Below, one piece after another: positions 43,086 through 54,214 of a stretch of DNA of 64,000 bases (within the stretch, counting starts at the first letter, position 1; each line of letters opens with the position of its first letter). Below the pieces are notes generated by a model. That model was not told where the DNA came from, made no database searches, and saw nothing but the letters and a program-made list of their open reading frames with translations. Both the position numbers and the translations under genes were made by a program. This DNA comes from Campylobacterales bacterium (GTDB taxonomy: Bacteria > Campylobacterota > Campylobacteria > Campylobacterales > QNZT01): contig JALVVR010000005.1 in NCBI GenBank assembly GCA_027023305.1, forward strand, positions 1-64,000, written 5' to 3'.

Positions 43086-43960
43086 TCATGCCACTTTTTG
43101 TATAAAATCAAGATAAATATTCATCGGTTTTTTATAGTTTATTGAAAAATGAAACCTCTTAAAATTATATTTGTGGATAAATGCTTTGATTCCCTCTTTT
43201 AGCTCCTTTATAGTTTGATAGTCTGAAATATAGATATTGTTCTGTTTAAATGTTCTAAAAAATCTCTCTATGATGATGTTATCAATAGTTCTACCTTTAC
43301 CGTTCATTGAGATTTCTATCTTGTGATCTTTTAGTATTTGTGTATGTTCATGGCTTGTGTATTGGCTACCTTGATCTGAGTTAAATATCTTTGGTGCTGG
43401 ATACTTAGCTAATGCCATTTTGAGCACATCTGTAGCCAATGTTGCATCCATTGAGTTTGAAAGTTTATAAGCTAAAATAGCTCTTGTATTCCAATCAATA
43501 ATAGCGGCTAAATACATAAAGCCACCATTCATTCTGATATAGGTGATGTCACCTCCATACTTCGTTAGGTGTATCGATTTTGACTGCTTTAGTTTTTTGT
43601 CCTGTTTTGTACCAGTATGGTTTGAGTAGGTATGGATAGACAGGATGTTCACTATTTTTGATACTAGTAACTTTCTTCTTATGTAGATAGAGGGCTTGGA
43701 TACCTAGTATCCCCATATATTTTAGAACTCTATTGTTGCCTATGGTGTATCCATCTTCTAAAAGTTGTTGATGTATCATTCTGTAGCCGTAGTCTGGGTT
43801 ATCTGTATATATTTCATCTATCTGATTGAGTATTGTTGCTAAATGGTATGGGCTTATAATAGAGTGTAGTTCTGTTGATTTCTAAAAGCTTTTGTCTGTC
43901 TTGTCATTGAAAGTGTTGTGAGCTTGGAGTCGACAAGATCTTTTTTATCAGATAAGTCCA
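43086..43960 (-). pseudogene. IS3-family transposase OrfB, frameshifted
   Basis: Fragments in different frames give a full OrfB order: QTKLLEINRTTLYYKPIP, IYTDNPDYGYRMIHQQLLE, then PYLLKPYWYKTG and TPNEVW, then (after a shift near 43555) GGDITYIRM, IIDWNTRAILAY, FNSDQGSQYTS and IIERFFRTFKQNNIY. The integrase-core residues D, D and E are all still present in the last fragment, but the frameshifts split the protein. Confidence 0.78.
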
Positions 43961-44262
43961 AGCTCTTTAGCTTTCCCACCGCCCAATCTCTCTCTATTGT
44001 AGTTTTCCCTAATCCTCTGGCTAAAGCATCATTTTCTTTTTTTAGCTTCTCCATTTTTTCTTTATTCTCTAAAGCATTATTGTCTGACTCAAATGCTTTA
44101 GAGGCATTTGCTAAAAACTCTTTTTTCCAATTCTGTATGGTTTTAGGTGTCACTTTATACTGTGTCGCTAGCTCACCTAGAGTTTGCTCCTCTTTGAGTA
44201 GTTCTCAATACTACTTTTGCTTTTTGTTCTAGGGTATATGTTTGCCTTTTTTTCTTTGCCAT
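43961..44262 (-). pseudogene. IS3-family OrfA (helix-turn-helix), frameshifted
   Basis: From the ATG at 44262 the product starts MAKKKRQTYTLEQKAKVVL, breaks frame near 44200, and resumes as VTPKTIQNWKKEFLANAS with the coiled-coil tail KMEKLKKENDALARGLGK and WAVGKLKSL. This is the OrfA layout of IS3-family elements, where frameshifting normally joins OrfA to OrfB. The shift near 44200 is inside the first helix-turn-helix and is damaging. Confidence 0.72.
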
Positions 44263-44344: not shown

Positions 44345-44594
44345 TCATCACTTTCCATAACTACATCAAGTAAAATCAAAGCTATGTCAGGATTTTTTTC
44401 AACAACTTTTACTGCCTCTTCTCCACTAAAAGCTGTAAAAACTCTATTCCTTTTTCATGAAACTCAAACTTTGATAAAACTGACTTAGTGATAGTATGAA
44501 CTTCTCTCTCATCATCTACTATCAAAATCTTCCATTTTGAAAGGTTTGTTTTTTTACTAGTATCTTCTGATTTTTTTTCAGCAAATTTTAGCAT
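44345..44594 (-). pseudogene. Response-regulator receiver domain fragment
   Basis: The ATG at 44594 starts a receiver domain: KWKILIVDDEREVHTITKSV carries the acidic pair, and after a one-base shift near 44440 AFSGEEAVKVV and LILLDVVMESDD give the phosphoacceptor aspartate. The sequence stops at the IS3-like element. DVVMESDD is typical of receiver domains fused to further signalling domains in this phylum, so this may be the front of the same gene as the kinase fragment at 42205-43023, or of a different one. Confidence 0.7.
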
Positions 44595-47548: not shown

Positions 47549-47677
47549 CTAAGAAAATAATTTTTTAAATATCCTTTTAAGAAACCCAACTTTAACATAT
47601 CTCTTTTTTGTTTGATCCAGCTTTTTTTCAAGATACTTATTTGCTTCTTTTATCTTTTTAGGTTTAAACTTATTCAT
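47549..47677 (-). CDS. Small basic peptide coupled to the OmpA-like stator gene
   Basis: A 42-codon ORF starting MNKFKPKKIKEANKYLEKKL whose ATG overlaps the stop of the OmpA-like gene (ATGAATAA). A third of its residues are lysine or arginine; it looks like one amphipathic helix followed by a hydrophobic basic end (GFLKRIFKKLFS). An AGAAGAT ribosome site lies just ahead, inside the upstream gene. No family is recognised. Coupling to the stator-like pair is the reason to believe in it. Confidence 0.45.
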   Translation of the reverse strand: MNKFKPKKIKEANKYLEKKLDQTKKRYVKVGFLKRIFKKLFS

Positions 47678-48674
47678 CTTCTAAAATCTTCTCTATCTCT
47701 TGCATTGACTCACTATTTTTAAGTAAAAACTTTATCTCTATTCTTCTTGAAGCATTTTTATCCTCTACTCCATCAACTTTTATAGGATCTAGGTAACTTC
47801 TTCCACTTGCCATAACAATAGGTTTTATATCATACTTTTTAGCAAAATCCAATCCCAAAAGAAAGTTCATAACTGAATATGCTCTTTTTTGTGAAAGCTG
47901 TAAATTATAAAGATAAGTACCATCACTATCACTATGACCTTCTATAATAATCCTATCTAAATGTTTTCTAATCTCTTCATTTTCTACAAGGGTTTTGATA
48001 TATCTACTAAATACATCTTTCAAGTTCTCTTTTGCATCCTCTTTTAAAACAGCCTTTCCTTTGTCAAACAAAACTTTAGATGAAAGCCTTAAAACTCCAC
48101 TTTTATCTATACTTACTTTATCTCCCAAAGACTCTTTTAAAGCAGATATAACTTTTATCTTTATACCTGTGAGACTTTTTATCCTACTCTTTGTACTTTG
48201 CAAATCACTCACAAGCTTTTCATATCTTGTCTCTTTATCATTTAACTTTGCTAAAAGAGCTACCATCTGCTCATCTTTTAGTTTTATACTATGATTTGCA
48301 TCTACTAACTGATTTGATAATACTAAAATATTACCTTTATATTTTTTTATATCCCTATCTTTTTTACCCAAAGTTTGATTTAAATCATTTATATCAGTTT
48401 GAAGAAGGACTATTTTATTACTTAAGTTTGAAAGCGATGCTTTTTGTTTTAAGAGCATCGACTTTAAGTTTTTTATCTCTCTATCTTTTAAAGTAAGAGT
48501 GTTTTTTACAGTTGCTAAATTTTTCTTTTTCGAGTTGAGGTTTGATTTTAAGACTATCGACTTAACTACTATCGCACCTATTAAAAGTATAAAGACAAAC
48601 AAAAGCCCAGCCATCAAATCTGCATAAGATATCCAAAAATTTGTGTTATCTGAGTTTTGTTTTCTTTTAAACAT
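47670..48674 (-). CDS. MotB/OmpA-like stator protein (non-flagellar)
   Basis: A 334-residue protein: short cytoplasmic start, one membrane helix with the MotB-type proton-binding aspartate in WISYADLMAGLLFVF (about residues 14-28), a long coiled coil (about 45-170) and a C-terminal OmpA/MotB peptidoglycan-binding domain (VLFDKGKAVL, IIEGHSDSDGTYLYN, LSQKRAYSVMNFLL, NASRRIEIKF). The long coiled coil would hold the OmpA domain well away from the membrane. With the MotA/ExbB-like gene five bases upstream it should form an ion-driven stator. No flagellar motor genes besides flhA are near. Confidence 0.8.
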   Translation of the reverse strand: MFKRKQNSDNTNFWISYADLMAGLLFVFILLIGAIVVKSIVLKSNLNSKKKNLATVKNTLTLKDREIKNLKSMLLKQKASLSNLSNKIVLLQTDINDLNQTLGKKDRDIKKYKGNILVLSNQLVDANHSIKLKDEQMVALLAKLNDKETRYEKLVSDLQSTKSRIKSLTGIKIKVISALKESLGDKVSIDKSGVLRLSSKVLFDKGKAVLKEDAKENLKDVFSRYIKTLVENEEIRKHLDRIIIEGHSDSDGTYLYNLQLSQKRAYSVMNFLLGLDFAKKYDIKPIVMASGRSYLDPIKVDGVEDKNASRRIEIKFLLKNSESMQEIEKILEDE

Positions 48675-48678
48675 ATCT

Positions 48679-49749
48679 TTACTTACTTTTCATGATCTTA
48701 TCTACTCTACCAACTACCTCATCACTTTTCTTTACCACTATATCAGCAAAATTAGCAAGATTTTTAACAATACTTCCTACCTCTTTATCCACACTACCTA
48801 AAGACTCTTGCATAGATGAGTCAAATCTTTCTAATGCAGAAGTAAAACTCTCTACTTTTTTATCTATATCTTCACTAGCCTTTATAACAGTTGTTGACTT
48901 AGACAAAGTTTTTAACTCATTTCCTATCTCTTTCATCTGCCCTGTTATATCGGAAAATGACTCTTTAGTCTTTTCTAAAAGTTCTTTATATGTATCTATA
49001 TAGGAGTCATTAAACTGCTTCATGAAGTGTATGTTAAAGTTTTCTTTTAAAGAGTAAATCAACTCCTCATTTTGCATCTGGTTTTGAGCAAATTTATAAT
49101 GTTCAAGAGAGATATCATCCCAAAGATGTTTTTTATATGCCCTTCTAACTAAAAGCATACTTTTTTCTATCTTTGTCAAACCCCTCTTTTCAAACATCAT
49201 CCACCAAATAGATAAAAATATACCAAAAATAGAAGCATAAAAAGCTGTTCCAACTCCACCAAGTAAAACTGAAATCTCTCTATCCAATGCATCCGTAGAA
49301 CTCACTGAAAAATCAGGCATAGAAATCGCAATAGCTACAAATGTACCTAAAATTCCAAGCATAGGAAATATAGTAGTAGCAACTGAAGCAAAGTTATCAT
49401 TTCTAAATCCACTAAAATACTTTTCAAAAAATGACTCTATTTTCATAGTTGACTTTTTCTTTCCATTTATCTTTAGAAGAGTCTTTCTTATAGCATCTTT
49501 TAAATCCTCTTCCATATCTGAAAAGTGATTTTTTATCTTACACGAAGTATAGTAAGCATTATGAGGGATAAAAAGCAAAAATATAAGGAATATTATCCCA
49601 ATAATTACAACAGTATGCACCTCCATTTTAAATGGTAAATATCCAAAATAACTAGCCACTACAATTCCAAAAATCGCTAAGGGAAGTGATAAAATAAACA
49701 GATAACTAACAAATGAATAACATCCTATCTTTTGCTCTTGTGTTAACAT
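48679..49749 (-). CDS. MotA/TolQ/ExbB-family proton-channel protein
   Basis: A 356-residue protein with two early helices (about residues 12-60), a cytoplasmic loop, and a paired helix block FPMLGILGTFVAIAISM and GGVGTAFYASIFGIFLSIWW of the MotA/TolQ/ExbB superfamily. A cytoplasmic tail of about 160 residues follows, with coiled-coil character (SEDIDKKVESFTSALERF). This tail is longer than in TolQ or ExbB. With the OmpA-like gene downstream it makes a stator-like complex. The architecture recalls ZorA, but the other Zorya genes are absent. Confidence 0.8.
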   Translation of the reverse strand: MLTQEQKIGCYSFVSYLFILSLPLAIFGIVVASYFGYLPFKMEVHTVVIIGIIFLIFLLFIPHNAYYTSCKIKNHFSDMEEDLKDAIRKTLLKINGKKKSTMKIESFFEKYFSGFRNDNFASVATTIFPMLGILGTFVAIAISMPDFSVSSTDALDREISVLLGGVGTAFYASIFGIFLSIWWMMFEKRGLTKIEKSMLLVRRAYKKHLWDDISLEHYKFAQNQMQNEELIYSLKENFNIHFMKQFNDSYIDTYKELLEKTKESFSDITGQMKEIGNELKTLSKSTTVIKASEDIDKKVESFTSALERFDSSMQESLGSVDKEVGSIVKNLANFADIVVKKSDEVVGRVDKIMKSK

Positions 49750-49829: not shown

Positions 49830-50855
49830 CTAAGAAAATTCTAAGAATCTATCCTCTATCTGCCTTTTTATATCTTCATAAACAAAACTATCTTTAAACT
49901 CTCCAAACCTCCCACCACTAGCATTTGCATGACCACCACCATCAAAAACCTCTTTTGCTAGTAAACTTACATCTATCTTATTATTCGCCCTTAGAGAAAT
50001 ATTTTTTCTACTATTTATATCCATAAAAAAGTCAAATTCTGGATTTTTTACTAAAAAGCCATTCCCTATAATAGAACTGTTTCCAACTGAATAAGTTAAA
50101 ATTCCTCTACTTCCTTTATAGTAAACACTCATCTTATCTTTATTTTTAGTTAAAAGCTCCACTACATATTCACTAACTAAGTTTTCTAAAGTATTATTCC
50201 CTTCTTGCATAAAAAAGCTCTTTTTTATAGGGTGAAGATTATCATCCAAAGCTATATGAGCATCCCTCTCACCTATAAACTTTGATGCCTGCTCTATTAT
50301 AGATTTTATATAATTAAAACTATCTTCACTAAACATTATCCTATTTATCTCTCTAGCACTCATGACATATCTTGCCAAGACTTTTCCCACCTCAAATCTT
50401 TTCTTTTGTTCAACCAACCATATATCATAAGCATTTACACACTCCACATACTCTTCCAAATCATCAATCACACCACTACTTTTAAACCAATCATAAGTAA
50501 TCTTAGTAGCACATCTACTCACATCTAAGTGATACCAACTATACTTTTCAGCTACCTCTTCTCCACTTTTATGATGATCTAAAAGAAGTATCTCAACATC
50601 TTTTTCTATATCTTTTATACTATCTTCCAAAAATACTGCTTGTTCTAAAGTAAGATTTAAATCACTTATCATGATAAGATTTTGACTAAATCCATCCTCT
50701 TTAATACTCCCTACTATCTGAGTTAATCTCTGTGTTATCTCATCACCATAGTTAGAGTTAAAAAACTCTATATCCTTAAAAACTCTATCAGTTATAAGCT
50801 GACAACTATATCCATCTAAATCTGTATGAGACAAATGATAAACTTTTTTACTCAA
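49830..50855 (-). CDS. DHH/DHHA1-family phosphoesterase
   Basis: A 341-residue RecJ-like phosphoesterase with the opening HLSHTDLDGYSCQL, the LLLDHHKSGEE motif and the C-terminal GGGHANASGGRFG of DHHA1 domains. Such proteins cleave short RNAs (nanoRNases), 3'-phosphoadenosine phosphate or cyclic dinucleotides; the exact substrate cannot be read here. The start is TTG at 50855, behind a good AAAGGA site. It follows flhA by nine bases. Confidence 0.85.
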   Translation of the reverse strand: MSKKVYHLSHTDLDGYSCQLITDRVFKDIEFFNSNYGDEITQRLTQIVGSIKEDGFSQNLIMISDLNLTLEQAVFLEDSIKDIEKDVEILLLDHHKSGEEVAEKYSWYHLDVSRCATKITYDWFKSSGVIDDLEEYVECVNAYDIWLVEQKKRFEVGKVLARYVMSAREINRIMFSEDSFNYIKSIIEQASKFIGERDAHIALDDNLHPIKKSFFMQEGNNTLENLVSEYVVELLTKNKDKMSVYYKGSRGILTYSVGNSSIIGNGFLVKNPEFDFFMDINSRKNISLRANNKIDVSLLAKEVFDGGGHANASGGRFGEFKDSFVYEDIKRQIEDRFLEFS

Positions 50856-53428: not shown

Positions 53429-54214
53429 CTAATCTATTTTTATAACTATTCTATTGTTTTTAGCTCTTCCTTCATCAGTGTCATTTGAGCCTATAAAATC
53501 AACTGCACCTTTTGGAACAACTTTTATCCTATCTTCATCCACTCCTCTATCAACAAGTTCCTCTTTAACTCTATTTGCTCGTCTTAATGCCATATCTACA
53601 CTATATGCAGCACTTCCTATGCCATCTGTATAACTAGTTAAAGTTACATTCTTTTGCGAATTGTTTCTCAAATCATTTGCTATATATGATATAAGTCCTT
53701 TTAATTTAGAGTTTAAAACTAAGTCATCATTGTCAAAATATTTTCCACCTATAACAAATCCACCATCACTTCCACCAAAACTTTGCTTAATCTCTTCTAA
53801 ATCCGTATCTACCGAAACGGTATCATCAACCTCTGTATTTCCATCATCTACATCTTGATGTTTAGCATCCTCAATAGCTTCATTTCTTCTTGTTATTATT
53901 TCATTTACTTGATTTGTAAGTTCATACTCTTTTTTCGTAAGTTCAGCTATTCTTACTTGCTTTTTTAAAAGCTTCGCATAGTATCCAGCTTTAACTCCAT
54001 CACTCTCACTCGATAGTGCATTTGCTATTTTTGAAGCTTTATAAAGTTCCTCAGAAGCATACTTTTGAACCCCTTTATCTACTTTTGCTTTTTTATACAT
54101 TTTTATAGCACTTATCACTTCACTATTTTTAACTTGTGGAGTAGCCACAGAAGCATTTTTACCACTACAACCCACAAACAAAAAACCCACTAATACTAAA
54201 GAAAAAAGTTTCAT
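53429..54214 (-). CDS. OmpA-family outer-membrane lipoprotein
   Basis: A 261-residue lipoprotein: signal peptide with lipobox LFVGC, a helical region (about residues 35-125), an acidic linker and a C-terminal OmpA domain with NVTLTSYTDGIGSAAYSVDM and GRAKNNRIVIKI (arginine and aspartate for peptidoglycan binding). It probably tethers the outer membrane to the wall like a Pal-type protein, but the helical region is not typical of Pal. It sits two bases downstream of another small lipoprotein gene. Confidence 0.83.
   Translation of the reverse strand: MKLFSLVLVGFLFVGCSGKNASVATPQVKNSEVISAIKMYKKAKVDKGVQKYASEELYKASKIANALSSESDGVKAGYYAKLLKKQVRIAELTKKEYELTNQVNEIITRRNEAIEDAKHQDVDDGNTEVDDTVSVDTDLEEIKQSFGGSDGGFVIGGKYFDNDDLVLNSKLKGLISYIANDLRNNSQKNVTLTSYTDGIGSAAYSVDMALRRANRVKEELVDRGVDEDRIKVVPKGAVDFIGSNDTDEGRAKNNRIVIKID

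What the first reader, a model, noticed from the sequence alone, without database searches (positions are those of the whole stretch)
47549..49749. Non-flagellar stator pair with long coiled-coil parts and a coupled 42-codon ORF
A MotA/ExbB-like protein with an unusually long cytoplasmic coiled-coil tail and a MotB-like protein with a long coiled coil before its OmpA domain form a two-gene unit, followed by a basic 42-residue ORF starting inside the last stop codon. The layout recalls ZorAB, but no ZorC, ZorD or ZorE is near. The pair may power an envelope function (gliding, outer-membrane tension, export) or be a reduced defence device.
Basis: partly seen in the sequence, partly recalled or inferred. 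Interest (0 to 1): 0.5.

Follow-up and report, generated by a model that had tools for sequence, protein, structure and literature searches.

The report
Zorya-like motor with hidden third gene
Bacteria related to Campylobacter carry a membrane motor pair that resembles the Zorya phage-defence motor but lacks its known partner genes and is not a flagellar part; in many of them it is followed by an overlapping, overlooked gene for a tiny conserved protein, which suggests that this kind of motor may also do a routine job in the cell envelope.

Summary
On the minus strand lie a MotA/ExbB-fold protein A (356 aa), a MotB-like protein B (334 aa) with a long coiled coil and an OmpA domain, and a 42-codon ORF C overlapping B's end by 8 nt (it starts just before B's stop, not inside it). 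A and B are closest to ZorA and ZorB by profile, fold and key residues, but far below curated Zorya cut-offs; no ZorC, ZorD or ZorE is in the window. A and B are adjacent in 20 of 20 relatives. B occurs in 143 of 298 genomes of the phylum, including 27 of 33 without FliG, so it is not a flagellar stator. In 20 of 20 chosen loci of one family the pair follows fba; in 14 of 100 loci it follows mreB-mreC. The surprise is C: its profile finds a homologue behind B in 78 of 80 loci against 0 of 621 control genes, and its frame is under purifying selection (median dN/dS 0.20; 1.37 and 1.70 in shifted frames). One large family lacks C. I read this as an orphan ZorAB-type envelope motor with an overlooked third component. 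Motor type and C are well supported; what they do is inferred.

The parts
48679..49749 (-). gene A: MotA/TolQ/ExbB-fold, ZorA-like subunit, 356 aa
49450..49479 (-). A residues 91-100: predicted beta-hairpin in the cytoplasmic part; a beta-sheet there is given as a Zorya-type trait in PMC12505986
   Evidence: model; passages of the paper
49342..49344 (-). A Thr136, aligned with ZorA1 T147 / ZorA2 T61; invariant in 58 rows
49231..49233 (-). A Ser173, aligned with ZorA1 S184 / ZorA2 S95; invariant in 58 rows
48682..49122 (-). A residues 210-356: helical tail, with D321 near the tip (invariant in 21 rows, at least 90% in 58 rows)
47670..48674 (-). gene B: MotB/ZorB-like subunit, 334 aa
48618..48620 (-). 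B Asp19, expected ion-binding Asp; aligned with ZorB1 D26 / ZorB2 D24; invariant in 47 rows
48126..48557 (-). B residues 40-183: long predicted helix/coiled coil between membrane and OmpA domain; total B length in 20 relatives 316-491 aa
47721..48092 (-). B residues 195-318: OmpA-like peptidoglycan-binding domain; H247, R264 and R310 align with ZorB residues
   Evidence: PMC11890865 section 6
47549..47677 (-). gene C: 42-aa basic microprotein overlapping B's end by 8 nt

Best explanation
A, B and C form one closely packed, overlapping unit that encodes an ion-driven motor of the ZorAB type. By homology, five A subunits surround two B membrane helices, and ions passing B Asp19 and the A Thr136/Ser173 ring turn the A ring (inferred from ZorAB structures). 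B's long coiled coil and OmpA domain hold the peptidoglycan well above the membrane (fold predicted, binding residues conserved, binding inferred). The A tails form a short cytoplasmic rod (inferred). C is made from its own ATG in the cytoplasm and is probably a small adaptor or regulator that joins the A rod or ring to the inner membrane through its amphipathic, aromatic C-terminal segment (inferred). The unit most likely does a routine envelope or cell-wall job rather than phage defence or flagellar rotation. My odds: ZorAB-type motor 0.9; C a real gene 0.97; envelope housekeeping 0.55; C as cytoplasmic adaptor or regulator 0.5.
For: Type: PADLOC ZorB1 model E 1.5e-55 for B and ZorA1 2.6e-16 for A. 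The A profile scores ZorA2 49.0 and ZorA1 37.1 bits, the next row 11.1, ExbB/TolQ-like rows 8.7 or less, MotA-like rows below 0 (these labels are mine, from size and sequence). In the tree A (21 rows) and three ZorA or ZorA-like rows join at 93/88, apart from MotA/ExbB/TolQ. All six PDB fold matches of A with E <= 1e-3 are ZorA; the best five of B are ZorB. Key residues align. C: behind B in 78 of 80 loci above 10 bits against 0 of 621 control genes; the 30 C-hit loci checked all hold B; dN/dS median 0.20 in frame, 24 of 24 usable pairs below 0.5, against 1.37 and 1.70 in shifted frames (pairs not independent). Role: B at E < 1e-30 in 143 of 298 genomes and in 27 of 33 FliG-less ones; fba upstream on the same strand (gap -17 to +100) in 20 of 20 loci of family f3; mreB-mreC directly upstream in 14 of 100 loci, mreC overlapping A by 4-8 nt in 5 of the 14.
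Against: No experiment; function rests on homology and gene context. The mreBC arrangement may be a single clade (not tested); the window's own neighbours (DHH-type protein, flhA, gatA, guaB) point nowhere. C is absent in 7 of 20 first relatives and gave at best 4.1 bits in 20 of 20 family-f3 loci, so the motor can do without it. The pair is patchy in places: in genus g11 of family f8 3 of 17 genomes have it. The tree has long branches, and the joining support is 93/88. The VIA Z of A with ZorA (10.6) is little above TolQ (9.2), in a range that is weak for helical bundles. PADLOC scores B well against a defence model. PMC11890865 calls Zorya II common in Campylobacter, and real ZorA-B-E loci do occur in this phylum.
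Confidence: 0.55

Rival explanations
1. A reduced or unrecognised phage-defence device: a Zorya-like sensor motor in which the slot behind zorB holds C as a small effector or regulator instead of ZorC or ZorE.
For: Closest relatives are ZorA and ZorB; in the two Zorya loci read, the next gene follows zorB directly (zorE 3 nt behind it, zorC overlapping it), as C does here; the pair is patchy in some genera.
Against: Scores far below the curated cut-offs (47.9 of 700 and 74.7 of 400 bits), though these cut-offs are strict; no Zor partner among 53 window proteins; the fba locus is the same in 20 of 20 family-f3 loci; C shows no credible Pfam domain and no likeness to one ZorC, one ZorD and one ZorE (0.2 bits or less).
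Confidence: 0.22
2. A Tol/Ton-like energiser that passes force through the periplasm to an outer-membrane partner; C is incidental.
For: MotA/TolQ/ExbB fold; TolQ and ExbB come next in the fold comparisons.
Against: B carries an OmpA domain, which TolR and ExbD lack (general knowledge); the A profile hardly scores ExbB- or TolQ-like proteins; none of the ten neighbour clusters run against Pfam is TolA- or TonB-like.
Confidence: 0.1
3. C is not a separate protein but a frameshift extension of B, so it would be periplasmic.
For: C sits in a fixed frame relative to B; of 87 frames taken by position the chosen start overlaps B's end by 11 nt in 64 and by 8 nt in 15.
Against: An ATG was available near B's stop in 85 of 87 (ATG was preferred when choosing starts, so this count leans that way); the aligned first position is M in 77 rows. 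No slippery site was searched for.
Confidence: 0.07
4. A second flagellar or gliding stator.
For: MotAB fold; flhA lies two genes upstream of A in the window.
Against: Present in 27 of 33 genomes without FliG; the own genome has a MotA-size protein elsewhere; neighbours differ among relatives. Gliding was not tested.
Confidence: 0.05

Closest known systems
ZorAB of Zorya type I and II (PDB 8QYD, 8VVN, 8VVI)
   Same: A and B folds, ion-site residues, peptidoglycan-binding residues, cytoplasmic helical tail, order A-B with a third gene directly behind
   Different: No ZorC/D/E; far below curated cut-offs; longer B coiled coil and shorter A tail than the yardsticks; third gene is a microprotein of about 35-71 aa; the same chromosomal place in 20 of 20 loci of one family
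Orphan long-tailed ZorA2/ZorB2-like pair of family f2 (seen here)
   Same: ZorAB-like pair without a recognised ZorE behind it, in housekeeping surroundings
   Different: ZorA2-like 639-873 aa and ZorB2-like 236-264 aa in six loci read; none of the 42 f2 genomes with such a hit has the present A-B pair
MotAB flagellar stator
   Same: General stator fold, Asp in the B helix, OmpA-like domain
   Different: Separate branch in the tree; A-B present without FliG
TolQR / ExbBD
   Same: General fold of A
   Different: No OmpA domain in TolR/ExbD (recalled); A profile scores 8.7 bits or less on ExbB/TolQ-like rows

Membership tests
Zorya defence system | ZorA/ZorB above the curated NCBIfam cut-offs | tested here: not met
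   47.9 of 700 bits (ZorA2), 74.7 of 400 (ZorB1); 0 of 298 genomes over the ZorB1 cut-off. Caution: the ZorA-B-E loci also stay below the ZorB2 cut-off, so this test alone is strict
Zorya defence system | ZorC and ZorD, or ZorE, next to ZorAB | tested here: not met
   none of 53 other window proteins (E <= 1e-10). In relatives only the recurrent neighbour clusters were identified; none is a Zor partner
Zorya defence system | anti-phage activity | not testable with these tools
   needs plating assays
ZorAB-type motor (structural kind) | ion-site residues: Asp in B, Thr and Ser in A | tested here: met
   invariant
ZorAB-type motor (structural kind) | beta structure in the cytoplasmic part of A | tested here: met
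   predicted model only; trait from PMC12505986 (passages)
ZorAB-type motor (structural kind) | 5:2 assembly with a tail rod | not testable with these tools
   complexes were not predicted
ZorAB-type motor (structural kind) | groups with ZorA in a tree | tested here: inconclusive
   93/88, with long-branch warnings
MotAB flagellar stator | found together with a flagellar motor | tested here: not met
   27 of 33 FliG-less genomes have B
TolQR/ExbBD | A closest to TolQ/ExbB | tested here: not met

The most novel reading that the evidence does not exclude
A rotary ion motor of the Zorya kind serves as a permanent envelope machine in this phylum, tied in some clades to the MreB-MreC wall-elongation system, and C is a dedicated third subunit, a cytoplasmic clutch or adaptor of a kind I know from no 5:2 motor. 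Zorya defence would then have a housekeeping cousin or ancestor, whose place is taken in family f2 by a long-tailed orphan ZorAB pair.
Probability: 0.35. Interest if true: 0.8.

Novelty: new variant of a known kind. Interest (0 to 1): 0.62.

Why it matters
Few 5:2 motors have a settled function (flagellar, Tol, Ton, gliding/type 9, Zorya; general knowledge). A stably inherited ZorAB-type motor without Zorya effectors would show that defence is not the only use of this motor type, would warn that searches for ZorA and ZorB alone may overcount defence systems, and would offer a small conserved partner (C) with which to ask what the cytoplasmic rod of such motors touches. The pair is also present in a family that I take to be Campylobacteraceae, so deletion strains should be feasible.

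Tried and rejected
Flagellar stator and TolQ/ExbB readings were tested and dropped. C as a chance ORF was tested and dropped: a single-sequence search gave only weak hits (best other E 0.012), but three of them (G062, G107, G220) lay directly behind B, which led to the profile. C against one ZorC, ZorD and ZorE: nothing. C against Pfam: 16 families, each matched by only one of 14 members, best E 0.0015, taken as chance. gatA behind C in the same-genus relative L126: no hit on a 3153-base contig, so undecided. Promoter scan: 11 sites against 12.3 expected; one terminator-like site inside B on the other strand, 0.3 expected. Rfam and tRNA: nothing in the window. VIA comparison of A listed TolQ, ExbB and unrelated helical proteins within a few Z of ZorA.

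Literature: the searches (open-licence PMC only) showed no paper on what this pair does or on C. Cj0598/Cj0599 as the C. jejuni pair is recalled, and fits the peb4-like/fba/A/B order but no named record was checked. In passages seen, PMC5841378 lists Cj0598 as a hypothetical protein with human-associated variants, and PMC2672935 lists Cj0599, as 'major outer membrane protein', in a cell extract.

Correction of my notes: the entry says that C is present in 15 of 20 relatives; the right number is 13 of 20.

Full report
Observation. Searches confirm three minus-strand ORFs: A (48679-49749), B (47670-48674) and C (47549-47677). The A-B gap is 4 nt; C overlaps B by 8 nt, its ATG lying just before B's stop. 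On the same strand, in order of reading, lie an OmpA-domain protein, an Rrf2 regulator, flhA, a divergent DHH-type protein, A, B, C, gatA and guaB.

What A and B are. Pfam gives MotA_ExbB and OmpA. NCBIfam and PADLOC put ZorA and ZorB first, but far below NCBIfam's cut-offs. A profile of 58 A proteins scores ZorA2 49.0 and ZorA1 37.1 bits, the next row 11.1, ExbB/TolQ-like rows 8.7 or less and MotA-like rows below 0. A 42-row tree joins A with three rows (two ZorA and a Nostoc ZorA-like protein) at 93/88, apart from MotA, ExbB and TolQ, and warns of long branches. The AlphaFold model of A (mean pLDDT 84) has a beta-hairpin at residues 91-100; PMC12505986 (abstract and passages seen) gives a beta-sheet in the cytoplasmic part as Zorya-type. 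Foldseek finds six PDB matches of A with E <= 1e-3, all ZorA; for B the best five are ZorB. B Asp19, A Thr136 and Ser173, and B H247, R264 and R310 align with ZorAB residues. PMC11890865 (abstract, section 6 and passages read) reports that the ZorB Asp and several peptidoglycan-binding residues are needed for defence.

Where the pair occurs. A search with B gives E < 1e-30 in 143 of 298 genomes of the phylum (recounted; 231 of 298 match at E <= 1e-3, which includes other OmpA-domain proteins). A scan of named genomes gave 313 relatives, of which the best 80 were kept; their titles name Campylobacterota where they name a group. A and B are adjacent in 20 of 20 fetched loci, and in 93 of 100 loci both could be assigned in that order (A was found in 94, B in 97). 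FliG is missing in 33 of 298 genomes (13 of them known only by their absence from the listed matches), and 27 of these 33 have B, against 116 of 265 with FliG. Kinship confounds this comparison, but it excludes a purely flagellar role. The pair is patchy in places: 3 of 17 genomes of genus g11 have it.

Gene context. Neighbours are not conserved overall. Three patterns recur. A class II fructose-bisphosphate aldolase gene (fba) lies upstream on the same strand in 20 of 20 family-f3 loci that I chose across six genera. clpX-mreB-mreC lies directly upstream in 14 of 100 loci, with mreC overlapping A in 5 of the 14. A gene on the other strand for a YceG/MltG-like protein is near in 20 loci, 15 of them the next gene behind B, and one for an AMIN-domain protein in 11. 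Other recurrent neighbours, such as a DUF2201 protein (20 loci), suggest nothing. Together this favours an envelope or wall role but does not prove it.

The microprotein C. Behind B, 13 of 20 first relatives have a similar small frame; seven do not. A 14-row profile searched over 398 genomes of the order gives 126 genomes at E <= 0.1, most of the weaker hits plainly chance. At E < 1e-3 there are 62 rows: 61 lie in frames of 43-120 aa (one with an inner stop) and one, a second hit in G062, in a 789-aa frame. I checked 30 loci of the best hits; all hold B. In 80 named loci, 78 score above 10 bits and 73 above 15; the two below are L085 (7.6, similar by eye) and L116 (0.6). None of 621 control genes in the same loci reaches 10; the highest is 8.9. 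Of 87 frames taken by position (ATG preferred in the choice), 85 have an ATG, and the overlap is 11 nt in 64 and 8 nt in 15. dN/dS, with the overlap left out: 26 pairs from 32 loci, 24 usable in frame, median 0.20, all below 0.5; shifted frames 1.37 and 1.70. Mean net charge is +5.8, with an F-x-P-x-x-L-x-x-A motif, a variable linker and about 3.3 aromatic residues among the last 16; the hydrophobic moment of the last 16 is 0.43 against 0.28 (sd 0.14) for shuffles, a modest excess. There is no credible Pfam match. Family-f3 loci show no C (20 of 20, at best 4.1 bits), so C is an accessory part.

A related orphan. ZorB2 hits at E <= 1e-40 occur in 48 of 298 genomes, 42 of them in family f2; none passes the cut-off. 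Of 12 loci read, five hold ZorA-, ZorB- and ZorE-like genes (L246-L249, L251; ZorE in L249 is short). Six f2 loci (L241-L245, L250) have a long-tailed ZorA2-like and a ZorB2-like gene without a ZorE match, in housekeeping surroundings: in L241 between exbB-exbD and rnpA-yidD-yidC, in L244 and L245 behind ExbB/ExbD-like genes. L252 is unclear. None of the 42 f2 genomes is among the 143 with B.

Mechanism and limits. The 5:2 assembly, ion flow, rotation and peptidoglycan anchoring are carried over from ZorAB; the rod, and where C binds, are inference. Nothing here shows what the motor drives. Defence remains possible (0.22).

Noticed in passing
L241-L245, L250 (family f2 genomes): Orphan long-tailed ZorA2-like (639-873 aa) and ZorB2-like pairs without a ZorE match; in L241 between exbB-exbD and rnpA-yidD-yidC. 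42 f2 genomes have such a ZorB2 hit (some, such as G120 and G139, with ZorE), and none has the A-B pair of this window.
   Followed up: partly
L109, L111, L112, L113, L115, L120, L124, L125, L127, L129, L132, L138, L141, L143: A-B directly downstream of clpX-mreB-mreC on the same strand; mreC and A overlap in five of the 14.
   Followed up: partly
window 49830-50855 (-): DHH-type protein of 341 aa upstream of A that stays below Pfam's cut-offs; possibly a divergent DHH phosphoesterase.
   Followed up: no
window 53429-54214 (-): OmpA-domain protein with a weak DUF4398 match, a lipoprotein by eye, at the head of the same-strand run that leads to A-B-C.
   Followed up: no
window 43854-44153 and 44409-44594 (-): Short lysine-rich frames downstream of guaB with no family above cut-off; the second looks by eye like the start of a response-regulator receiver domain and may be a remnant.
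   Followed up: no
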